The notes under the pieces were generated by a model that saw only the letters and a list, made by a program, of their open reading frames with translations, made no database searches and was not told the DNA's origin. The translations under genes were made by a program, and so were the position numbers. 46,069 nucleotides of DNA from Deltaproteobacteria bacterium (GTDB lineage: Bacteria; Desulfobacterota; Desulfarculia; Adiutricales; Adiutricaceae). This document shows positions 498-34,265 of this stretch, piece by piece; positions within the stretch are counted from its first letter, which is position 1; every line of letters starts with the position of its first letter. Location: positions 1 through 46,069 of the forward strand of contig JAISMU010000098.1 of the NCBI GenBank assembly GCA_031276635.1, written 5' to 3'.

Positions 498-3269
498 GTG
501 AAAAAAAAACTTATCGAGGTCGCCCTACCTCTTGAAGCTATAAATAAAGCCGCTTCAAGAGAAAAATCAATCCGGCATGGTCATCCTTCCACTTTGCATC
601 TATGGTGGGCCCGGCGCCCCTTGGCCGCGGCTCGAGCGTTTCTCTTCGCCTCATTAATTGACGATCCGTCTTCTCATCCTGAATTATTCTCCTCCGAAGC
701 TGACCAAATTGCTGAACGAAATCGTCTGTTTAAGCTAATTGAGGATTTGGTTATCTGGGAAAATTCCAACGATTCTGGGCTGTTGTCAGCAGCTAGGGAG
801 GAGATAAAAAAATCCTGTGGGGAAACTCCGCTTGAATTTTTGGATCCCTTCGCCGGAGGGGGCTCTATTCCCCTGGAGGCGCAGAGACTGGGGCTAAAAG
901 TCCAAGCTAGCGACCTAAATCCGGTGGCCGTCATGATCAATAAGGCCATGTTGGAAATTCCAGCCAGGTTCGCGGGTCGACTTCCAGTTAACCCTGAGAG
1001 CGCGAGGTCAAATGTCCAAGGGGTGAAGTGGATCAGAGCCGCTGGCTTGGCCGAGGATGTGGCTTATTACGCGGGGTTGTTGAAAAAAGAGGCCTTTGCT
1101 AAAGTAGGCCATCTTTACCCAACCATAGAGTTGCCTGGTCAACAAGGTAGCTCTCAAGAGGCTCAAGTGGTGGCTTGGATTTGGGCCAGAACTGTAAAAT
1201 GCCCTAATCCAGCTTGTGGATGTCAGATGCCTTTGGCGCGCTCCTTTACTCTTTCTAGTAAAGCGGGACAAGAGGTTCAAATTAACCCAATAATTAGGAA
1301 TAATCAATTTTTTTATGAAATACAAAATGGAAAATCAGTACTTAATGGAACAGTTAATCGCAGCGGAGCGCAATGCTTAGTCTGTAATAGCCCAGTAAAT
1401 TTCTCTTATATTAGAGAAGAAGGAAAAAATCAACGGTTAGGTAATTCATTATTGGCTATAGTAGCCCAAGCCCAAAATGGAAGAGTATATTTATCTCCAG
1501 ACGAAAGTCATGTTAAGATCGCAAATATTCCAAGACTAAAACTTGATTCAAATTATCAAATACCAAATAATACAAGAGATTTTAGAACTCAAATTTATGG
1601 TATGATTAATTATGATGATTTATTTACATCTCGTCAATTATTATTTTTAACTACATTAGTTGATTTAATTTCTTATATCCAGTCTGAAGTTAAAAATGAT
1701 TCCATTAAGTCCGGATGGAGTAATGATGGAGATGGGTTAGAGGAAGGAGGAACTGGAGCTAAAGCCTATAGCCAGGCTATTATCGTTTATTTAAGTTTTT
1801 TAATAGATAAATTGGTTGATTACCATTCAAATTTATGTACATGGAATAGTTCCGGAGAAAAAATTCGAAATACTTTCGCTAGGCAAGCTCTGCCTATGGT
1901 CTGGGATTACGCTGAAGGTAACCCGTTTTCCGACTCATCTGGTAGTTTCAATAACATGATAGAATGGATTGTTAAAGCTATTAGAGCTTTACCGGCCAGT
2001 AACCCCGCGGTTGTTAATTTGGCGGACGCGCAGACTGATAATTTATCAAAAAATATCATTATTTCAACTGACCCTCCATATTATGATAATATAGGCTATG
2101 CTGATTTATCTGACTATTTTTATATCTGGCTTAGGCAATCACTTAAAAATGTTTATAAATTAATATTTAAAACAATATTAGTTTATAAAAGTGATGAACT
2201 GGTGGCCGCTCCCTATCGATTTGAGGGGAATAAAAGTAAAGCGAAAGATTTTTTTGAGTCTGGCCTCAAAAAGGTTTTTGCTAATTTTTTTCAATCTGTC
2301 TCTGAGGATTATCCTATAACCATCTACTACGCTTTCAAACAAACTGATTCTAAAAGTGATGATAAAATTGATAATATTTCCTCAACCGGTTGGGAAACAA
2401 TTTTGACGGCCCTTATAGACTCAGGGTTTTCCATCACTGGGACTTGGCCGGTAAAAAGCGAAAGGAGTGCTCGCCCTGTTAGTTTAGGGACCAATGCTTT
2501 AGCCTCATGTATTGTTTTGGTTTGTCGAAAAAGACCAAAAAACGCATCACCCAGTTCATCAAGGGATTTTCGCAACTACTTGAGGGATGAGTTAAAGCCA
2601 GCCCTTTTAAACTTACAGGGAGCCAATATCGCCCCAGTCGATCTGGCTCAGGCCGCTATTGGGCCGGGCATGGCCATTTACTCCAGGTATTCTTGTATTC
2701 TGAATGTTGATGGCACAACAATGCCAGTCAGAGTAGCTTTAGGGCTCATCAACGAGGAGCTGGACAAATATTTTACTGACCAAGAGGCTCGTATAGACAC
2801 GGACAGCGCGTTTTGTGTGTCTCTCTTCTCTCAGGTAGGTTTTGGTAAAATTTCATTTGGGGAGGTTGAAGTCCTGGCTAAGGCCAAAAACGCCTCCATT
2901 GATCGATTGAGGAACAAGGAAGTTCTTTTTGCCGAAAAGGGGATTGTCAGTCTTTTTGGTCTTTCGGAAATCCCGACCGAGATTACGCCCCAAGAGGACA
3001 GTGTCTGGCTTTTAACCAACCAGTTGACGAGGGCCTTGGAGAAAGGTGGAATAAAGGCCTGCGCCAAAATCGCCATTGAAGTGGATAACAGTTATCAATT
3101 CGATCTGGCCAGGGAGTTGGCTTACCGCCTGTACAATATTTGTGAGCGAAAAAAGTGGGCCCCTGAGGCCTTCGCCTACAACTCTTTGGTCCAGGCCTGG
3201 CCGGAAATCCAACTCAGTATTTTGGACCTGAAAAGACCCAGCGGGGAGCCGGAGGGTCGATTGTTTTAA
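498..3269 (+). CDS. DUF1156 / COG1743 adenine-specific DNA methyltransferase
   Basis: A 923-aa protein that begins with the DUF1156 signature (IEVALPLEAINKAASREKSI, then GHPSTLHLWWARRPLAAARA, residues 6-46). It has the SAM-binding motif LDPFAGGGSIPLEA at 115-128 and the amino-methylase catalytic motif DPPYYD at 525-530. A zinc-ribbon-like pair of Cys motifs (C235/C240/C242 and C293/C296) sits between them. Length and motif order fit COG1743 proteins, which are thought to methylate the N6 of adenine. The start is GTG with only a weak AAGAG upstream. Known relatives often sit beside a DUF499 ATPase and a helicase in defence loci; neither follows here. The middle of the gene (about 1260-2330) is clearly more AT-rich than both ends, which suggests mosaic origin or recent acquisition. 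No stop or frameshift breaks it. The methyltransferase call is firm; the target and role are unknown. Confidence 0.9.
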   Translation: MKKKLIEVALPLEAINKAASREKSIRHGHPSTLHLWWARRPLAAARAFLFASLIDDPSSHPELFSSEADQIAERNRLFKLIEDLVIWENSNDSGLLSAAREEIKKSCGETPLEFLDPFAGGGSIPLEAQRLGLKVQASDLNPVAVMINKAMLEIPARFAGRLPVNPESARSNVQGVKWIRAAGLAEDVAYYAGLLKKEAFAKVGHLYPTIELPGQQGSSQEAQVVAWIWARTVKCPNPACGCQMPLARSFTLSSKAGQEVQINPIIRNNQFFYEIQNGKSVLNGTVNRSGAQCLVCNSPVNFSYIREEGKNQRLGNSLLAIVAQAQNGRVYLSPDESHVKIANIPRLKLDSNYQIPNNTRDFRTQIYGMINYDDLFTSRQLLFLTTLVDLISYIQSEVKNDSIKSGWSNDGDGLEEGGTGAKAYSQAIIVYLSFLIDKLVDYHSNLCTWNSSGEKIRNTFARQALPMVWDYAEGNPFSDSSGSFNNMIEWIVKAIRALPASNPAVVNLADAQTDNLSKNIIISTDPPYYDNIGYADLSDYFYIWLRQSLKNVYKLIFKTILVYKSDELVAAPYRFEGNKSKAKDFFESGLKKVFANFFQSVSEDYPITIYYAFKQTDSKSDDKIDNISSTGWETILTALIDSGFSITGTWPVKSERSARPVSLGTNALASCIVLVCRKRPKNASPSSSRDFRNYLRDELKPALLNLQGANIAPVDLAQAAIGPGMAIYSRYSCILNVDGTTMPVRVALGLINEELDKYFTDQEARIDTDSAFCVSLFSQVGFGKISFGEVEVLAKAKNASIDRLRNKEVLFAEKGIVSLFGLSEIPTEITPQEDSVWLLTNQLTRALEKGGIKACAKIAIEVDNSYQFDLARELAYRLYNICERKKWAPEAFAYNSLVQAWPEIQLSILDLKRPSGEPEGRLF

Positions 3270-11195: not shown

Positions 11196-11835
11196 ATGAG
11201 CTTCCAGGTCTTCAGTGAGATACCCAGTTCCAAGGGACGTTTGGATCTCGGAGGGGAGCTACCTGGTCAGATCTATTTGATTCTTGAGCTCAAATATCGG
11301 GGCAAACCCGTTCAAAAATTGGCAGACAAACAAAATAAGATATTGGCGAATGTGGCCAGAAAATCCTTGTCCAGGGTGGCAAGGTATGAAAGTTTAGCCA
11401 AAATAGTTTCAAAGAATCTTGATACTAATAAAATCAAGCTAATATTATCAGAATTAAGTGACGATGAGTCAACTGAGACTAAAGAGAATTACTTGCTGGC
11501 CCAGTTCGCCTTGAAATCATTCCCAGACAAGGACATCAACGACGCTCTGGCCGCAACGGTTCTGGAAAAGCTCCCTCGCGACAGACTTGAGAAAGAGTTA
11601 CTCAATTTAGGCGTTAAGATAGACCTGCCCCAAAAGACCGAGGACCTATCCGACGAGCGTAATTGACCCGGTTTTAACCAAGGTCGCCCAGGAGGCCTTG
11701 AGGGACATAACCCCAAAAGACTATCATGGCTCCTTCAGGCTTAAAGCTAAAGGATTTATTGACCTGGGCCTGGCCATTTATGCTGATGGCTCCACAGTCA
11801 AGGCGTTGTTTGGCTCGGAAATCCCCAAAGGTTAA
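11196..11835 (+). pseudogene. Broken PD-(D/E)XK nuclease domain of the AAA-ATPase-like/PDDEXK_9 family
   Basis: The first frame (11196-11666) opens with KGRLDLGGELPGQIYLILEL (from residue 13), which holds the D..E-x-K active-site pattern at D17, E31 and K33 of PD-(D/E)XK nucleases. The typical C-terminal part (DITPKDYHGSFRLKAKGF, then LGLAIYADG) appears in the next frame up to the stop at 11835, so a frameshift lies near 11658. The large N-terminal ATPase domain normal for this family is missing. I therefore call a truncated, frameshifted remnant. An intact relative of the same broad family is at 32607-34265. Confidence 0.75.
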
Positions 11836-12459: not shown

Positions 12460-13683
12460 CTATTTCAGGCTTCCCGAAGAGTTTTTTTCGGCGGGGCTTT
12501 TCAAGCCTCTGAGCCCGGGATGAAGAACAAGATAATAAACCAGGTAAAAGCCCAGGAAAATCAAGGCGTTGACTGAGTCGCCCCAGAAGACGGCCCGGTA
12601 GTTGTCGGCTAACTCGGCGATGAGGCCAAAGGTTATTGAGCCCACGCCAAAGCCAATGTCCAGGGAGTTAAAAAGCGAGGAGGCCACGGCCGTTCGGAGC
12701 TCCGGTCGGGAGGAGGTGAAGGCCAGGGCCTGGACGCAGGGAAAAAGGGTGCCAGTCGCCAGGCCCCACATGACCGAGGCGACCAGGACTGTGGCCAGGC
12801 TTTGGAATTGGGTGATGACCAGGAGGGCGGCGACACTCAGGCCAATGGCCGGGGCGATGACCACTCGGTGGCCAAAACGGTCCTGCAAGGGCCCGGAGAA
12901 GATTCGGGACAGGATTATTCCAACCGTGGAAAACCCAAAAAACTGGCCACTATAGGGCAGGCCTATCTCCTTACAGTACAGGGCCAGATAGACGGCCACC
13001 GCGCTGACGGTAATCCCCAGCAGAAACATCAGGGTTGAGGGGGCCAAAGCCGCCAGGGAGATGATGACCAGCTTGGGTTTGCGGCCAGCGGGTGGAGCGG
13101 GGAGGCGAACATCCGGTAGAAACACGGTCCAGATGAGCCCTAGGGCGTAGAAACTGCCAACTGTCAGAAACAGAGCCAAAAAACCCATGTTTTCCATGAG
13201 CCAGATGCCGACGGAAGGGCCCACCGCCAAGGTCAGGATGACTCCCAGGCCCAGAAAGCCCAAGCCCTGGGCCATCCGGTTAACCGGGATGATCTGGGCG
13301 GCCACGGAGGTTACCAGAGTTGAGGTCAGCCCGAACCCCAGACCGTGAAAAAAGCGGGCTAGGGAGGCGGAAAAGGCGGTCAGAGCCAGATAATAACCAG
13401 CCACCGCCAAAGCGCAGATGAAAAGGCCGACCCGGATGATGATTAGGGGCCGAAAGTACAGAACCAGGCGCGGGGCAGAGGAGCGGGCCAGGATGGCTGA
13501 GATGATGAAGACGCTGAAGATTTGGCCTATGGTGTCCCGAGAGTGTCCGTGGCTCTCCAGGAACAAGGTCAAAGTCGGCAGCAGGGTGTCAAAACCCAGG
13601 AAAATAAAGATGTTCAGGATCGTCAGAACTTTGAACGGCAAGGTCCAAAGCGTGCCATTCTTAGGGGAAGTTATTGGAGTCAT
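12460..13683 (-). CDS. Major facilitator superfamily transporter
   Basis: A 407-aa inner-membrane protein with about twelve hydrophobic segments in two halves, separated by a basic loop near residues 190-205 (PAPPAGRKPKL). The loop between helices 8 and 9 carries SRIFSGPLQDRFGHR, the second-half copy of the MFS signature. The region looks like the drug/metabolite exporter subgroup, but the substrate cannot be told. It is a single gene between two inverted copies of the 110-bp repeat (12025-12134 and 13769-13878). The start is ATG at 13683. Confidence 0.85.
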   Translation of the reverse strand: MTPITSPKNGTLWTLPFKVLTILNIFIFLGFDTLLPTLTLFLESHGHSRDTIGQIFSVFIISAILARSSAPRLVLYFRPLIIIRVGLFICALAVAGYYLALTAFSASLARFFHGLGFGLTSTLVTSVAAQIIPVNRMAQGLGFLGLGVILTLAVGPSVGIWLMENMGFLALFLTVGSFYALGLIWTVFLPDVRLPAPPAGRKPKLVIISLAALAPSTLMFLLGITVSAVAVYLALYCKEIGLPYSGQFFGFSTVGIILSRIFSGPLQDRFGHRVVIAPAIGLSVAALLVITQFQSLATVLVASVMWGLATGTLFPCVQALAFTSSRPELRTAVASSLFNSLDIGFGVGSITFGLIAELADNYRAVFWGDSVNALIFLGFYLVYYLVLHPGLRGLKSPAEKNSSGSLK

Positions 13684-14303: not shown

Positions 14304-17300
14304 TCATTCTGAATAGAGTTTACACAGGGAGATAATTTCATCATCGGCGGCGGCCCCAGTGTGGGCTGATAACCCTAAGGGAATTATCAGCTTTTGAATT
14401 TCCCCGGTCATGGGTTTGACGAAAAAATGACCTGGTTCCAAGTTGGCGATGACCCCTTTAACTCCAAGATAGGTCTCGGCGGTTTGGATGGAGATTGGGG
14501 ACGATAGTTTCCCAAAAAATTGGGTTGAGCAGTTGCCAGGGACTTGGTTGTGCACGCTTTTGGGCTCTTGAGAGGCCAGGACAAAACCTAAGCCGTACTT
14601 TCTGGCTTGGCTGGCGAAGCGAATCAGAGCCCCTTTGGCTAGGGAAGGATTCACGGTTGGAACGAAGTCTTTGGCCTCATCAATGACTAATAGCCCCTGA
14701 AGATTAGCTTTGGGATGTTTTTTGCCCCAGGCGAAATAAGACTGAGCCAGTTGGCTGACAAAGATTTGTTGGGACTCAACCGAGCCCAGGCCTGAGAGAT
14801 TAAAAACCGAGATGGACCTCTGTTTGTCCCCAGGATCCAGAATAGCTTCAATAGTGGTGATAGGGCCTTCTTTATAAAGAGGATTGGTTATTTTAAGAGC
14901 CTGAAGCGAGTTAACTAATTTTTGGGCTTTGGTCGCGGAATTATTAAAGATATCCGCGGTCCGGGCTGGCAGGTTGCTTAAAAAATTGATCAGGTGCCCT
15001 AAATCGGAGACTCTGTTTTGGACCAGGTCTTCAATGGCTAATCTCAGCAAGGCTTTTTCCACGCCATCTTTTATTTTGATGACCTCAGCCAGAGAATCGG
15101 CGGCAATATCTATATTGGAGGTCAAATCCTCATCAGGAGCGACGCCAGAAAAATCTGGCAGATTAGTCAAGAGAATCGGGCGCCCATTGGTGAGACCAGG
15201 GGTATAAATTTTAAAAGCCGTATTAGCGAAATAATCCTTTTCCTTGGCAAATTCCTCTGGCCCCCAATTGGCCGGATAGATGGGCCATTTTTGGCCAAGA
15301 CGGACCAGATCATTTCCCACGTCCACGATAATGGCCGAAATGCCTTGCAAGGCGGCTTCCTCAACCAAGCGACGTAGGGTCACAGTTTTGCCGGAGCCGG
15401 AGCCACCAAAAATGATAGTGTGCCTGGTGAGATCGTTTAAATCCAGGTAAAATTTTTCAGTGGGCTGAGCTTCAAGCTTACCCATATAGATTTTTTCGGA
15501 GGCGACCTTAGCGACCGGAGTTGGCTCTGAGGTCGGGGTAAGAGGGGTTATCGGGGGGGTTGGGGTAACGGAGGTTGACCTGGAGTTGACCGGCTCAGGG
15601 TCAGGCTCGTTAGAAGGTGAGAGGCCTTCAAGCAAGAACTTCAGCTCAGGGCGAAGAAACTCATTTTTTTGGGTGGGCTTGTTGGCCTTGGCCCAGGGGA
15701 TCCACTTGTGCGGAAACTTTTTGGACACTGCCCAAAGGGCGGCCAGATGCCTGACGCTCGACTCATCAGGTTGGAGCCACTGGCCTTTCTGAACCTCAAA
15801 ATCTTTAATCGTCTTTAAAGTCTTGTCGCCTTTTAAATTTTGCCGATCAAAACGAATTATGGTCAGGCGCTTATGGGGCGATTTGCGGTCCAGGCCAATT
15901 GATTTCATGGCTTGTTCCAGGCGATTAATGAAAGCGCGGTTATTGGTGAGCAAAAGAGCCCGGACGCCTAGATAGAGGTCGGTTTTTTGGCCCTGGGCGT
16001 GCTCAAGATGGAGTTGGAAATGAACCGAAGGAAAGGTTTTCAGAGACTGATTGGGCGGGAATTCCACGGAGATATAAGTGTTCTCCGGCAAGCTGTCCTC
16101 TATCTCGTAGCAAAAATATCTGGCGAAAGTCAGAAGAGCCTCTGGCCAGAGATTTTTTTCCGCCTCTAAGTCCTTCCAGTCGGCGATTATAGTGTCTTTA
16201 TAACAACTGTCATAAAATAAGTTCAGCTCTTCGTCAGTGCCAGAGGGAGGAGGTAGGGTTACAACGTTGGTGACGACCTCGCTTTCAACACTGGCCTCGA
16301 AGACAACGCCTTTACTGACACACTCAGTTTGATGCTTTCGGCAGGCTTGTAAAAATTTTCTCGGGATGGTGTTAAGCTGGGATGAAATATAACCGTCAGG
16401 AAACGGCCAAGTGGGATATGGAGGCATAAAATCGTTTTTTTGAAAAGCCGGCGTCAGCCGACTTTTTACCAGTAGCTCTAAGGCGGTTTTATCAGTTAGA
16501 GGGGAAAGAAGATATCGGTTGGGAAATCTGTCCATAGCCGACTTGTAGGCGTCTGTGTCCAATTTTTCCCAAGTGCGGTTTAAGCAAGACAGGACAGTCA
16601 GGCAACGGCTGTTGAAGACCACCAAGCTGGCCAGGCTATCGCAAAAACCATTGATGGCTATTTCAGGACTAGGGCCATTTTGGACCACATAATTTAAGAT
16701 GTTGTCAATTTGATCGATGGCGAGGACGGTGGCCCTCTGGCCCAAACTCATCAGCCAGGTCAGGCCCCGGATAATCTTGTCCGGGGAGGGGCTTGGGGCG
16801 GTAAGACCATAGGCGGACAAATTAGTTATGGCGTTCTGGCCCAGAAGCCAATTATAACCAATTTCCGATAGACTGAGATCTTGGGAGGTGGAAAGTAAAA
16901 ATGCCCGGACTATGTTGGCGTGTTTAGGGGCATTGGCTGGATCCAAATTTTTGAGGTAAGCGGCGATTTTTTGGGAATTTTTTATTAATTTGTCAGAAGG
17001 CACTTTGGTGAATATTTTTGCCTTATTTTCCTCAGAGCCAGCAAGTTTAAAGATCTGGCCAAGTATTTTGAGCGCCTGGGTCCAGCCATCGCCGAGTGGG
17101 GCTCGAAGGGAATCCAGAAAATGCTCCAGCGCTTGAGGCCAAAACTCATTGGCGTTGGCTAAATTGACATAGATAAAATAGGCCCCACGAGTTTGAGTTT
17201 CTCGCCGTAAGGCAGACAGTAAATGGGTTTTGCCTGAGCCAGCGTCGCCACTAAAGCAAAAACCCATGGGGGAGCCGGGTTTGGGGCTGTTGATCAGACG

Positions 17301-17447
17301 GGTAAGGGCCGCGGTGACATTAAGCCGCTCCTCGCGGTGGATTTCGGGCACATCAATGATCTCGTTTGACCAAATTTGCTCGTAGATCACGACACTGTCA
17401 AAGTCGGCCTGTTTGAAAACCTCAAGCTCATTGATCTGATCGGCCAT
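14304..17447 (-). CDS. Double ATPase: ORC/AAA-like N-half fused to HerA-like C-half
   Basis: A 1047-aa protein. The N-half has Walker A GDAGSGKT (67-74) and Walker B ATVLAIDQID (239-248), like STAND/ORC-Cdc6 type ATPases. A middle region (about 400-610) matches nothing I recognise. A Pro/Thr/Glu-rich linker (611-650) leads to a HerA/FtsK-like half. That half has Walker A GGSGSGKT (681-688), Walker B LLVIDEAKDF (919-928) with D923-E924, and a likely arginine finger in FASQARKYGLG (R949). HerA-type motors form hexamers that pump DNA and often power nucleases in defence systems. It starts 10 bases after the stop of the winged-helix gene, so the two form an operon. No nuclease, Sir2 or methylase partner is adjacent. 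Both ATPase sites look intact. Function unknown; a DNA-acting conflict or maintenance system is an inference. Confidence 0.85.
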   Translation of the reverse strand: MADQINELEVFKQADFDSVVIYEQIWSNEIIDVPEIHREERLNVTAALTRLINSPKPGSPMGFCFSGDAGSGKTHLLSALRRETQTRGAYFIYVNLANANEFWPQALEHFLDSLRAPLGDGWTQALKILGQIFKLAGSEENKAKIFTKVPSDKLIKNSQKIAAYLKNLDPANAPKHANIVRAFLLSTSQDLSLSEIGYNWLLGQNAITNLSAYGLTAPSPSPDKIIRGLTWLMSLGQRATVLAIDQIDNILNYVVQNGPSPEIAINGFCDSLASLVVFNSRCLTVLSCLNRTWEKLDTDAYKSAMDRFPNRYLLSPLTDKTALELLVKSRLTPAFQKNDFMPPYPTWPFPDGYISSQLNTIPRKFLQACRKHQTECVSKGVVFEASVESEVVTNVVTLPPPSGTDEELNLFYDSCYKDTIIADWKDLEAEKNLWPEALLTFARYFCYEIEDSLPENTYISVEFPPNQSLKTFPSVHFQLHLEHAQGQKTDLYLGVRALLLTNNRAFINRLEQAMKSIGLDRKSPHKRLTIIRFDRQNLKGDKTLKTIKDFEVQKGQWLQPDESSVRHLAALWAVSKKFPHKWIPWAKANKPTQKNEFLRPELKFLLEGLSPSNEPDPEPVNSRSTSVTPTPPITPLTPTSEPTPVAKVASEKIYMGKLEAQPTEKFYLDLNDLTRHTIIFGGSGSGKTVTLRRLVEEAALQGISAIIVDVGNDLVRLGQKWPIYPANWGPEEFAKEKDYFANTAFKIYTPGLTNGRPILLTNLPDFSGVAPDEDLTSNIDIAADSLAEVIKIKDGVEKALLRLAIEDLVQNRVSDLGHLINFLSNLPARTADIFNNSATKAQKLVNSLQALKITNPLYKEGPITTIEAILDPGDKQRSISVFNLSGLGSVESQQIFVSQLAQSYFAWGKKHPKANLQGLLVIDEAKDFVPTVNPSLAKGALIRFASQARKYGLGFVLASQEPKSVHNQVPGNCSTQFFGKLSSPISIQTAETYLGVKGVIANLEPGHFFVKPMTGEIQKLIIPLGLSAHTGAAADDEIISLCKLYSE

Positions 17448-17457
17448 TATCTGAACC

Positions 17458-18108
17458 TTACTTCAAATAAATCAGATGAAAAGGGCTTCTGGCCACCCAG
17501 AGAGCCGCCTCTTTATCCGCTTGGGTCACTTGACTTGGGTCATCGCCTAGGCTACTTAAAACCAAAAACCGCTCTTTTTGGAGCCGCAAAAGGGCCGAGT
17601 CCAAGGCCTCGCGGGCTAGGTCAGCCAATATGGGTCGCAGCTCGGCCAGCCGGATAGCCCGCCCTTCTCGATGATGTTCCTGAATAAAAGCCAAAAGGCC
17701 CGCCTTGACTCGGGGGGTGGGATCGACTGGCTCTGGGTTAACAGGGGCCGGGGAGCTTAAAAAGATATCCGCGAGGCTAAGGCTCTTATTTTTTAAGAAT
17801 CGGGCCAAATGGGTTAAAAATTGACCGAATATGTCCGCGCCCGCGTAGGTGCGGGCGTTAACCGGGTCTGTCAGGTTCTCCCCCAGGTATTGCCAGCCTT
17901 TCTCGGTCAACTCAATCCGCAGGGCCGGAGGGTTTTTGGCGGGCCGGTCCTCGCGTTTTTGTTTGTATTGAGAGATCAGGCCCTGGCTGACTAAGATTTT
18001 CCGGTCCGGGGCTCCCAGTTCGGGTTTGAGCTCCTTATACCAGCCAACGCTGTCGTTTAAGGCCAGTCGCCAGAGAAACAAAAGGGCCAGGGGTCTGACT
18101 TTATCCAT
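17458..18108 (-). CDS. Two-domain winged-helix-like protein paired with the double ATPase
   Basis: A 216-aa soluble protein that I do not recognise as a named family. Residues 5-80 (LALLFLWRLALNDSVGW, then LRIELTEKGWQYL) read as a winged-helix domain. Residues 132-190 (VKAGLLAFIQEHHREGR, then LDSALLRLQKERFLVLSSL) read as a second winged helix. A Pro-rich linker (119-131) separates them. The gene ends 10 bases before the double-ATPase start, which implies a functional pair. It could be the DNA-binding or regulatory partner of the motor. It begins 51 bases after the ybaK stop, so read-through from the flavodiiron operon is possible. Confidence 0.65.
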   Translation of the reverse strand: MDKVRPLALLFLWRLALNDSVGWYKELKPELGAPDRKILVSQGLISQYKQKREDRPAKNPPALRIELTEKGWQYLGENLTDPVNARTYAGADIFGQFLTHLARFLKNKSLSLADIFLSSPAPVNPEPVDPTPRVKAGLLAFIQEHHREGRAIRLAELRPILADLAREALDSALLRLQKERFLVLSSLGDDPSQVTQADKEAALWVARSPFHLIYLK

Positions 18109-18159
18109 GATAGGCGCCTTAGAGATAAAAATGAGTTTATCTGACTATACCTGAATTGA

Positions 18160-18657
18160 TTATTTATTTAAAGGCTTTTTGGCGATGGGGGCCAGGATTC
18201 CCTGAGTGGCTCGCAGGAGATCCTGTGGTCTCAGCAGAAACATCAGTCCCCTGGCCCCGGCGTTGATGGCTATTTTGTCCTTGGTCATGATGGCCTCATC
18301 CAGGTAAACCGGAAAGTCTTTCAGGCCACCCAGGGGTGAGCAACCCCCGCGAAGATAGCCGGTCAGGGCCGTTAATTCCTTAACCGTGGTCAGGGCCACG
18401 CTTTTGTCGCCAGTGGCCTTGGCCAAGGCTTTGAGGTCCAGCTCTTCCGCCGCCGGGAGGCAGGCTTCCAGCAAGCCATGTCGGTCCCCGCGCAACAAAA
18501 GGGTCTTGTAGACAATGTCTTGAGGCAGATTTAATGAATCAGCCGCCTCGACAGCTGAGAGTAGGGGGCCCGGCTCATAGGGCACAAGCTCATAAGTCAG
18601 GCCCAGGCTCTCCAGGCGTCGGGCGGCTTGGGTTTTTTTCAGGGTCTTTTGGCCCAT
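18160..18657 (-). CDS. ybaK: YbaK/EbsC-type Cys-tRNA(Pro) deacylase
   Basis: A 165-aa cytoplasmic protein. It hydrolyses Cys mischarged onto tRNA-Pro. The family fold is evident from DIVYKTLLLRGD (47-58), the conserved lysine of which (K51) is catalytic in relatives, and from LTGYLRGGCSPLGG (97-110) and DEAIMTKDKIAINAG near 119. Length is normal. Its start lies 9 bases after the flavodiiron stop, so they are co-transcribed. Confidence 0.93.
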   Translation of the reverse strand: MGQKTLKKTQAARRLESLGLTYELVPYEPGPLLSAVEAADSLNLPQDIVYKTLLLRGDRHGLLEACLPAAEELDLKALAKATGDKSVALTTVKELTALTGYLRGGCSPLGGLKDFPVYLDEAIMTKDKIAINAGARGLMFLLRPQDLLRATQGILAPIAKKPLNK

Positions 18658-32606: not shown

Positions 32607-34265
32607 ATGGAGTTATTGCCTATTGGGGTGGCTGATTTTCAAACAATACGAAAAAAAAACTATATCTACGCTGATAAGACTGAATTCATCTCTAAATTGC
32701 TGGAAATAGACACTCCATATTTTCTCTCCAGGCCTCGCCGATTCGGGAAATCTCTTTTTGTCAGCACTCTTGAGGCCGTTTTAAGGGGCCAGAGAGAGTT
32801 ATTCAAAGGACTGTGGATAGACCAGTCCGATTATGACTGGCAACCTTTTCCGGTCATCCATTTGAGTCTGTCCGCCGTCAGGACTGACAGCGTGGCGACT
32901 GTCAACGAAGCTTTGCTGTCTTATGTCAAAAGTATCGCCAAAGATGAGGGCTTGTTATCAATTCAGGAGCCCACCCCGGAGCTTTTTTTCAAAGCTTTGA
33001 TCAAAGGGCTTCACACAAAATATGGTCAGAAACCAGCGATACTCATTGATGAGTATGACGCCCCCATCCTGAGTAAAATCACTGAGCCCTCGCTGGCCGC
33101 GGGTATTCGAGACTCTCTTAAGCTTTTTTATAGCGTTATGAAAGATATGGAAAAGTATAGAGGTTTCACCTTTATAACTGGTGTGTCTAAATTTGCCCAA
33201 ACGTCCATTTTTTCCGGCCTTAACAACCTTTTTGATTTAACTCTCGATCGGGAATACGCCAATATTTGTGGTTTTACCATTGAGGAATTTGATACCCTTT
33301 TTCAAGACCAATTGGTTGAATCGCTTGAGTTGTTAAAAAAATTTGGCGAGATTGACCAAGCGGACACAGTCGTTGATCTCCGGCGTAAAATCCTGGAATG
33401 GTATGACGGCTACTCCTGGGATGGAATAACCAGGGTCCTTAACCCGTGGTCCCTTCTTTCCTTTTTTAAACGGCGAGCCTTCATTAATTTTTGGTTTGGC
33501 TCGGGGACACCAACTTTTCTGGTTAATCTTGTTAAAGAAAAAAGATTAGAGTTGAATTATTTTAAATCTGATAATTATATTACAGATACAATTAATGAGA
33601 TTCATTTAGTAGATTTGAATCCTACTCCATTAATGTTTCAAAGTGGTTATTTAACTATTAAGACCGATATACCACTAGATGGTTCAATATATAATTTAAT
33701 TTTTCCTAATTTAGAAGTTAAAGCATCTTTATTGCCTCTTCTCCTGTCATTTAATAGCTCTTTTAAAAAGCCTCTCCTTATGCGGCGACAGGCTCTGGCT
33801 GTCCTGGCTTGTTTGTTTCAACGCGACCTCTCTGGTTTTAAAGAGGCTTTTGAGAGCTTTCTTTCTAACATTCCCTCCGAACTCCATAAGCCCGAAGAGG
33901 CTTTTTACCACGCGCTTTTCCTAACGGCCATGGCTATGGCTGATCAATATTTTGAGTCTGAGTTATCGGTGGCTGGCGGTCGGCTTGACCTGCACCTTAA
34001 GGAGCCTGAGGGCGATGATTTTGTTATTGAGGTAAAATATCTCAAAGAGAAGGAGAATCTGGAAGAAAAACTTCGGGAGGCTTTTGACCAGATAGAGAAT
34101 AGAAAATATTTCCTCAAATTCCAAGGAGCGGGTAACCGAATCTGGAAAACCGCCCTGGTGATCGGGAGGAGGAGCGGGGTAACAATTAGTTATGAGGAAG
34201 CCAAAAACTGGAGCCTTAAGTTTAATGGGCTCAATTACATTTTCCCAAATCATCAAGAAGAGTAA
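32607..34265 (+). CDS. AAA-ATPase-like / PD-(D/E)XK nuclease-domain protein, intact
   Basis: A 552-aa protein of the two-domain family AAA-ATPase_like (PF09820-type) plus PDDEXK_9 (PF08011-type), common in large copy number in gut bacteria. The N-domain has DKTEFISKLL (23-32), the P-loop variant FLSRPRRFGKSL (39-50) and Walker B ILIDEYDAP (145-153). The C-domain has the active-site pattern D461 (GGRLDL) and E475-V-K477 (DFVIEVKYL), with a conserved end GAGNRIWKTALVIG. All key residues are present. The cellular role of the family is unknown; DNA cleavage is inferred. Codons 310-370 are more AT-rich than the rest. Three remnants of relatives lie within 23 kb. Confidence 0.9.
   Translation: MELLPIGVADFQTIRKKNYIYADKTEFISKLLEIDTPYFLSRPRRFGKSLFVSTLEAVLRGQRELFKGLWIDQSDYDWQPFPVIHLSLSAVRTDSVATVNEALLSYVKSIAKDEGLLSIQEPTPELFFKALIKGLHTKYGQKPAILIDEYDAPILSKITEPSLAAGIRDSLKLFYSVMKDMEKYRGFTFITGVSKFAQTSIFSGLNNLFDLTLDREYANICGFTIEEFDTLFQDQLVESLELLKKFGEIDQADTVVDLRRKILEWYDGYSWDGITRVLNPWSLLSFFKRRAFINFWFGSGTPTFLVNLVKEKRLELNYFKSDNYITDTINEIHLVDLNPTPLMFQSGYLTIKTDIPLDGSIYNLIFPNLEVKASLLPLLLSFNSSFKKPLLMRRQALAVLACLFQRDLSGFKEAFESFLSNIPSELHKPEEAFYHALFLTAMAMADQYFESELSVAGGRLDLHLKEPEGDDFVIEVKYLKEKENLEEKLREAFDQIENRKYFLKFQGAGNRIWKTALVIGRRSGVTISYEEAKNWSLKFNGLNYIFPNHQEE

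What the first reader, a model, noticed from the sequence alone, without database searches (positions are those of the whole stretch)
14304..18108. Two-gene unit of a winged-helix protein and a fused ORC-like/HerA-like double ATPase
The pair is tightly spaced (10 bases) and joins two NTPase folds in one 1047-aa chain, with complete Walker A and B motifs in both halves and a Pro/Thr linker between them. HerA-type motors usually work with a nuclease or Sir2 effector; none is adjacent here, and the middle region (about 400-610) matches no family I know. The unit could be an undescribed DNA-conflict or chromosome-maintenance system in which the middle region is the effector or target sensor.
Basis: partly seen in the sequence, partly recalled or inferred. 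Interest (0 to 1): 0.7.

Follow-up and report, generated by a model that had tools for sequence, protein, structure and literature searches.

The report
DNA-pump defence pair without its nuclease
Two adjacent genes encode a DNA-binding protein and a large two-motor DNA pump that stay together across many distant bacteria, usually beside a DNA-cutting enzyme, so this is most likely the core of an anti-invader defence system whose cutting enzyme has been lost or disabled in this genus.

Summary
A 216-aa winged-helix protein (17458-18108 -) and a 1047-aa double ATPase (14304-17447 -) lie 10 bases apart, with complete ATP-binding motifs in both halves. The pair is a real conserved unit: in 79 loci from Actinomycetota, Methylobacteriaceae and MAGs of other phyla, the winged-helix gene lies directly upstream in all 77 with DNA there. 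The unknown middle region is modelled as an inactive restriction-endonuclease fold (pLDDT 92; best PDB matches EcoT38I and PaqCI), so it is probably not the effector. Outside this genus, the slot upstream of the pair holds a DUF559 nuclease (42 of 79 loci), the PADLOC candidate defence genes PDC-M02A/B (9, plus one with B only), or nothing (27, two of them cut off by contig ends). In this genome the slot is 51 bases wide. The only nuclease homologue, on another contig, has lost its catalytic residues, as in all five genomes of the genus that have it. The pair sits at the same chromosomal site in four genus members and evolves far faster than its neighbours. The parts match the 'HerA/FtsK capture' systems predicted by Rakesh et al. 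2024. I read it as a new, nuclease-less variant of that kind; no function is demonstrated.

The parts
17458..18108 (-). 216-aa protein with two winged-helix DNA-binding domains (about 6-77 and 131-215); invariant partner gene
   Evidence: ORF; AlphaFold2 pLDDT 90.5; Foldseek best matches include PadR/MarR-type winged-helix regulators, prob 0.97-0.99; present in 77 of 77 distant loci with upstream DNA
14304..17447 (-). 1047-aa fused AAA+/STAND ATPase - inactive REase - HerA/FtsK ATPase
   Evidence: full-length homologues in several phyla
16293..17447 (-). N-terminal ORC/Cdc6-like AAA+ (STAND-like) ATPase, residues 1-385; Walker B is DQxD
   Evidence: AAA_16 E 4.9e-11, Hda-like E 3.4e-10; DQ[ILVMF]D seen in most homologues
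15558..16226 (-). middle region, residues 408-630: inactive PD-(D/E)XK (restriction-endonuclease) fold
   Evidence: AlphaFold2 pLDDT 92.2 with alpha-beta-beta-beta-alpha-beta core; Foldseek EcoT38I prob 0.99, PaqCI 0.96; no conserved D/E..ExK on strands 2-3 in 42 homologues
14304..15497 (-). C-terminal HerA/FtsK-type translocase ATPase, residues 650-1047
   Evidence: DUF87 E 5.7e-16; PADLOC mad8 E 2.9e-21, HerA E 9.4e-16; PDB HerA chains E 2.4e-9 and weaker
18109..18159 (-). 51-base gap between the winged-helix start and the ybaK stop: the slot that holds the nuclease gene in relatives; no room for a gene here
18160..18657 (-). flank, not part of the system: ybaK/ProX-type aminoacyl-tRNA deacylase; fixed neighbour across the genus
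   Evidence: PF04073 E 1.5e-23; synteny
12460..13683 (-). flank, not part of the system: MFS transporter; fixed neighbour across the genus
   Evidence: synteny in G002, G005, G006

Best explanation
The pair is the conserved core of a counter-invader system of the HerA/FtsK-capture kind. The winged-helix protein and the AAA+/inactive-REase half bind and sense DNA of an invading element, with the AAA+ half acting as a nucleotide-gated assembly switch (its Walker B is DQ rather than DE). The HerA half assembles a hexameric dsDNA pump that intercepts and translocates that DNA. In most relatives the pumped DNA is passed to a nuclease encoded just upstream (DUF559/Vsr-like, or the DUF4365 nuclease of PDC-M02). 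In this genus that nuclease is missing beside the pair and survives elsewhere only as a catalytically dead protein, so here the pair either uses an unidentified nuclease in trans or restricts invaders by translocation or occlusion alone. Shown: conserved pair, domain content, motifs, nuclease slot and its swapping, loss of nuclease residues in the genus, synteny and divergence. Inferred: hexamer, DNA pumping, invader target, defence.
For: Winged-helix gene directly upstream of the fused ATPase in 77 of 77 loci with upstream DNA. Upstream slot: DUF559 nuclease in 42, PDC-M02A (DUF4365; E 2.9e-66, 1.7e-71) plus PDC-M02B (E 4.9e-98, 7.3e-142) in 9, PDC-M02B alone in 1, none in 27. At least 12 changes of slot content on the ATPase tree. 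Nuclease catalytic D..ExDG residues kept outside the genus (and inspection). Middle region = inactive REase fold. HerA half best matches defence HerA models. Patchy distribution: frequent in family f1, one genome elsewhere in the order, no full-length hit in the rest of the phylum sample. Pair 33-56% identical where most flanking genes are 65-86% identical at the same site. Tandem clusters in relatives. Published class with the same parts.
Against: No activity data of any kind. Neighbouring genes are mostly not defence genes. Within the genus and within Mycobacteriaceae the locus sits at fixed chromosomal sites, like a resident gene rather than a mobile one. About a third of loci lack a recognised nuclease. 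No phage, plasmid or mobile-element target is known.
Confidence: 0.62

Rival explanations
1. A chromosome-maintenance or DNA-segregation/repair machine: the AAA+ half loads the HerA pump at chromosomal sites marked by the winged-helix protein.
For: Fixed chromosomal position in four genus members and in several Mycobacteriaceae; nuclease-free loci keep the ATP-binding motifs; HerA-NurA is a repair machine in archaea (established knowledge).
Against: Patchy distribution even among close relatives; divergence far above the flanking housekeeping genes; exchangeable nuclease partner including a candidate defence system; tandem duplicates.
Confidence: 0.2
2. A DNA-transfer (conjugation or uptake) component, like CedB/CedD or a TrwB coupling protein.
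For: Weak matches of the HerA half to CedD (48 bits against a cut-off of 600) and TrwB_AAD_bind.
Against: No secretion, pilus or relaxase genes recur next to the loci; the nuclease partner fits degradation better than transfer.
Confidence: 0.06
3. In this genus the locus is decaying: the nuclease was lost and the pair is a relic.
For: Nuclease absent at the locus; its homologue elsewhere is catalytically dead in 5 of 5 genus genomes that have it; fast divergence.
Against: ORFs are full length in at least four species; both Walker A and B motifs are intact; the HerA half is 48-56% conserved, above the other parts; dead nuclease ORFs remain open, which a relic would not explain.
Confidence: 0.12

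Closest known systems
HerA/FtsK-capture systems, Orc/CDC6 class (Rakesh, Aravind & Krishnan 2024, PMC10853773)
   Same: Orc/CDC6-type AAA+ ATPase, inactive REase, HerA/FtsK, wHTH and (in relatives) an active REase, in one or several polypeptides; predicted counter-invader function
   Different: No wHTH strands modelled after the inactive REase in the same chain; two wHTH come from the partner gene; DUF559 or PDC-M02 in the nuclease slot; no active nuclease found in this genome; vertically inherited here. Whether the authors' supplementary list already holds these proteins could not be checked.
PADLOC candidate system PDC-M02 (A = DUF4365 nuclease, B = about 366 aa)
   Same: Both genes occupy the slot upstream of this pair in 9 actinobacterial loci (a tenth has B only)
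   Different: The window pair matches no PDC-M02 model; as far as its models show, PADLOC defines PDC-M02 without the pair
DUF4297-HerA, Sir2-HerA, HerA-NurA two-gene systems
   Same: HerA-type motor partnered with an effector in neighbouring genes
   Different: Here HerA is fused to an AAA+ and a dead REase, there is little room for a HAS barrel before Walker A, and no effector is adjacent in the window
MADS (methylation-associated defence system), MAD8
   Same: MAD8 is the best-scoring PADLOC model for the HerA half (E 2.9e-21)
   Different: The winged-helix partner and the AAA+ half match no MADS model; no MADS cluster seen around the pair
DndFGH / DndH
   Same: HerA/FtsK domain in a large restriction protein; weak PADLOC hit (E 0.003)
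   Different: No DndF or DndG match in the pair; different domain order

Membership tests
HerA/FtsK-capture, Orc/CDC6 class | Orc/CDC6-family AAA+ ATPase | tested here: inconclusive
   AAA+/STAND P-loop clear (AAA_16 E 4.9e-11); the clade assignment to ORC/Cdc6 was not resolved by profile searches
HerA/FtsK-capture, Orc/CDC6 class | inactive REase domain after the AAA+ core | tested here: met
HerA/FtsK-capture, Orc/CDC6 class | C-terminal wHTH following the inactive REase in the Orc protein | tested here: inconclusive
   Only helices are modelled after the REase core; wHTH domains are in the partner gene
HerA/FtsK-capture, Orc/CDC6 class | HerA/FtsK ATPase | tested here: met
HerA/FtsK-capture, Orc/CDC6 class | wHTH protein | tested here: met
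HerA/FtsK-capture, Orc/CDC6 class | active REase encoded in the neighbourhood ('usually' in the published description) | tested here: inconclusive
   Present in 42 of 79 distant loci as DUF559 and in relatives of the same family; absent at the window locus and dead elsewhere in this genome
HerA/FtsK-capture, Orc/CDC6 class | HerA/FtsK belongs to clades 2, 4 or 5 of the published tree | not tested
   The published alignment was not available
HerA-effector two-gene systems (Sir2-HerA, DUF4297-HerA, HerA-NurA) | effector gene adjacent to HerA | tested here: not met
   Adjacent genes are ybaK and an MFS transporter
HerA-effector two-gene systems (Sir2-HerA, DUF4297-HerA, HerA-NurA) | HAS barrel before the RecA core | tested here: inconclusive
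   About 36 residues between linker and Walker A, which I judge too few; no HAS-barrel model among the 25 of 42 Pfam matches shown
MADS | MAD1-MAD7 partners | tested here: not met
   Partner has no PADLOC match and only MAD8 matches the ATPase; not every ORF of the window was scanned
BREX-related capture (BRC) system | PglZ, DUF6079, DUF4007 components | tested here: not met
   No such match in the pair
PDC-M02 | PDC-M02A and PDC-M02B genes | tested here: not met
   Neither matches the window pair; DUF4365 not found in the genome (its controls also stayed silent, so this is weak)

The most novel reading that the evidence does not exclude
A defence system whose motor core can work without cutting DNA: in this genus a HerA/AAA+ translocase with a built-in dead endonuclease fold, and a separate DUF559 protein whose duplicated nuclease domains have lost their catalytic residues, would recognise and clear or block invader DNA by capture and translocation alone.
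Probability: 0.22. Interest if true: 0.72.

Novelty: new variant of a known kind. Interest (0 to 1): 0.5.

Why it matters
It turns a one-genome oddity into a defined module: an invariant motor pair with an exchangeable nuclease slot, spread over several phyla, one version of which carries a PADLOC candidate defence system. That gives concrete constructs (with DUF559, with PDC-M02, with neither) to test how HerA/AAA+ capture systems find invader DNA, and whether the motor can act without a nuclease.

Tried and rejected
(1) Genome census with the window protein alone: no locus found; a 5-row cross-phylum alignment succeeded. (2) Middle region by sequence profile: no PDB match; only fold comparison worked. 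(3) WH and NUC profiles against PDB: only marginal or chance hits, e.g. histone H2B for NUC, ignored. (4) A roughly 1150-aa gene next to several relatives looked like a further component; it reads as an MFS-acyltransferase-acyl-CoA-synthetase-like fusion at a conserved site, and other large neighbours look like membrane sensor proteins (read from sequence), rejected. (5) Phage records: no homologue. (6) MADS, BREX-related capture and DndFGH membership rejected. (7) Defence-island test: 84 neighbours in the family gave only scattered PADLOC hits. In 111 neighbours elsewhere, the most frequent were PDC-M02A/B, i.e. the slot genes themselves; the rest of that list was cut at 25 of 76 families. 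No control regions were scanned. (8) The regex tally of nuclease residues failed on 14 distant sequences and mis-tagged L074; reading the printed sequences shows the motif in all but L110_8247, a shadow ORF. Some Walker-motif misses come from truncated contigs or strict patterns.
Full report
OBSERVATION. Both genes are as described: a 216-aa ORF at 17458-18108 and a 1047-aa ORF at 14304-17447, minus strand, 10 bases apart. The large protein has two complete P-loop ATPase halves. The first has Walker A GDAGSGKTH and Walker B ending DQID. The second has GGSGSGKTV and LLVIDEA. Across 15 relatives the key glycine, lysine, threonine and aspartate residues are invariant. Pfam gives AAA_16 (E 4.9e-11) for the first half and DUF87/HerA (E 5.7e-16) for the second. 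PADLOC gives MAD8 (E 2.9e-21) and HerA models, and solved HerA chains match. The small protein matches nothing by sequence.

THE PAIR IS A REAL UNIT. In the same genome a second locus on contig C118 carries a winged-helix homologue (37% identity over the N-terminal part) followed by an AAA+/middle protein without HerA, preceded by a 454-aa protein. Among 148 related genomes, homologues are common in the same family (f1). One full-length copy occurs elsewhere in the order (G038). The remaining class and phylum hits cover only the HerA core. The winged-helix gene tracks the ATPase, and relatives carry clusters such as nuclease - AAA/REase/HerA - WH - AAA/REase, or tandem duplicates. Three plasmid-collection records (Methylobacterium aquaticum, Nonomuraea gerenzanensis, Tsukamurella tyrosinosolvens) hold a clean three-gene operon: DUF559 protein, winged-helix protein, AAA/REase/HerA protein. 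A scan of genome contigs gave about 76 more loci, mostly Actinomycetota and Methylobacterium, with single MAGs of Acidobacteriota, Planctomycetota and Hyphomonadaceae. In 77 of 77 loci with upstream DNA the winged-helix gene lies directly upstream; two loci are cut off by the contig end.

THE MIDDLE REGION. An alignment of 42 homologues gave a confident AlphaFold2 model (pLDDT 92.2, pTM 0.86) with the order helix, three strands, helix, strand, helix, strand. Foldseek's best PDB matches are the restriction endonucleases EcoT38I (probability 0.99, 0.97) and PaqCI (0.96); other PD-(D/E)XK proteins (BstEII, Mus81-EME1) follow at low probability. E-values are modest (3e-3 and above) and TM-scores low, so this is a fold-level inference. 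In the 42 sequences no catalytic-type acidic or lysine position is conserved on strands 2 and 3, where the catalytic D and ExK would sit; the only near-invariant charged residue is an arginine after strand 4 (R532). I read the region as an inactive endonuclease domain, more plausibly a DNA-binding or structural element than the effector.

THE PARTNER. The 216-aa protein is modelled as two winged-helix units with a flexible link (pLDDT 90.5, pTM 0.53). Foldseek's best matches are mostly PadR- and MarR-type winged-helix regulators.

THE EFFECTOR SLOT. Upstream of the winged-helix gene, 42 of 79 loci have a DUF559 (Vsr-like PD-(D/E)XK) protein, above Pfam's cut-off in those tested. Nine have instead a DUF4365 protein plus a 366-aa protein, which match PADLOC's candidate defence families PDC-M02A and PDC-M02B with E-values down to 1e-71 and 1e-142 in the two loci scanned directly; a tenth has PDC-M02B only. 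DUF4365 is named as a nuclease domain of short-Argonaute systems (PMC10810196, abstract). Twenty-seven have no recognised nuclease, two of them because the contig ends. On a tree of the ATPases the slot content needs at least 12 changes among 74 loci (quick tree, long branches flagged). This is the pattern of a motor core with an exchangeable effector.

THE WINDOW COPY HAS NO NUCLEASE. Only 51 bases separate the winged-helix start from ybaK. The only nuclease homologue in the genome is the 454-aa C118 protein, whose DUF559 domains have lost the catalytic D and E. All five genus genomes with such a homologue show lost catalytic residues, each with different substitutions. In the other genera of the family that I read, the D..ExDG motif is kept, with one serine for the glycine. 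The dead proteins remain open ORFs of about 450-540 aa.

INHERITANCE AND RATE. In G002, G003 and G006 of the same genus the pair lies at the same place: (dnaE-) rfaE - pth - rubrerythrin - flavoprotein - ybaK - [pair] - MFS - aspartokinase, as far as the contigs reach. Flanking proteins are mostly 65-86% identical (pth 57-66%, dnaE 62-66%). The winged-helix protein is 33-46% identical, the AAA+ half 37-45%, the dead REase 37-43%, the HerA half 48-56%. So the pair is a long-term resident, inherited vertically here, and changes faster than its neighbours, most in the presumed sensing parts and least in the pump.

MECHANISM. My best reading (about 0.6) is a counter-invader capture system: DNA recognition by the winged-helix protein and the AAA+/dead-REase half, nucleotide-controlled assembly, HerA pumping of the captured DNA, and cutting by the slot nuclease where there is one. 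DUF4297-HerA, a HerA hexamer with a nuclease that protects against phage, is the structural precedent (PMC11291478). Oligomerisation, pumping, target and protection are inferred here, not shown. In this genus either an unidentified nuclease acts in trans or capture alone suffices. The main rival is a chromosome-maintenance machine (0.2).

COMPARISON WITH THE LITERATURE. Rakesh, Aravind and Krishnan (PMC10853773, sections 22 and 26) predicted 'HerA/FtsK capture' systems; one class combines an Orc/CDC6 ATPase, an inactive REase, an active REase of one of two families, HerA/FtsK and wHTH, in one or several polypeptides. The window pair and its relatives fit this parts list closely, so the kind is known as a prediction. 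Differences: the fused order AAA+ - dead REase - HerA without a modelled wHTH after the REase, the wHTH domains in a separate invariant partner, DUF559 or PDC-M02 in the slot (neither DUF559 nor DUF4365 is named in the main text), and a genus without an active nuclease. I could not see their supplementary lists, so these proteins may already be among their examples. A follow-up (PMC12839542) repeats the model for a BREX-related version. I found no experimental test of the Orc/CDC6 class in the open-access library searched.

VERDICT. A correct observation, a partly correct interpretation, and a new variant of a known, so far only predicted, kind of system.

Noticed in passing
window 498-3269 (+): Adenine methylase HmaB (PADLOC E 0) at the left contig end; the other Hma genes, if any, would lie beyond the contig edge. 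About 11 kb of mostly housekeeping genes separate it from the pair.
   Followed up: partly
window 32607-34265 (+): AAA-ATPase_like plus PDDEXK_9 protein (PF09820 E 1.6e-58) in a low-GC patch; homologues lie near the pair in several relatives (L066, L075, L090). A fragment of the PDDEXK_9 part may remain at 11196-11666.
   Followed up: partly
L004 10461-11825; L197, L198, L199, L102: DUF559 homologues of the window's genus have two tandem nuclease-like domains without the full set of catalytic residues, each species with different substitutions.
   Followed up: yes
L106, L121, L133, L150, L178, L180: In six actinobacterial loci the operon sits among ribosomal-protein genes (between rplN and rpsQ where annotated, L106), suggesting a recurrent insertion site.
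   Followed up: no
L120, L137, L146, L151, L171: Several Mycobacteriaceae carry the pair without a nuclease next to the same oxidoreductase gene, a second case of long-term nuclease-free retention.
   Followed up: partly
L070 7894-9390 and 9635-11035: A genus member (G005) has two tandem HerA-only ORFs at the syntenic site; the AAA+ half is not seen, one copy being cut by the contig end.
   Followed up: no
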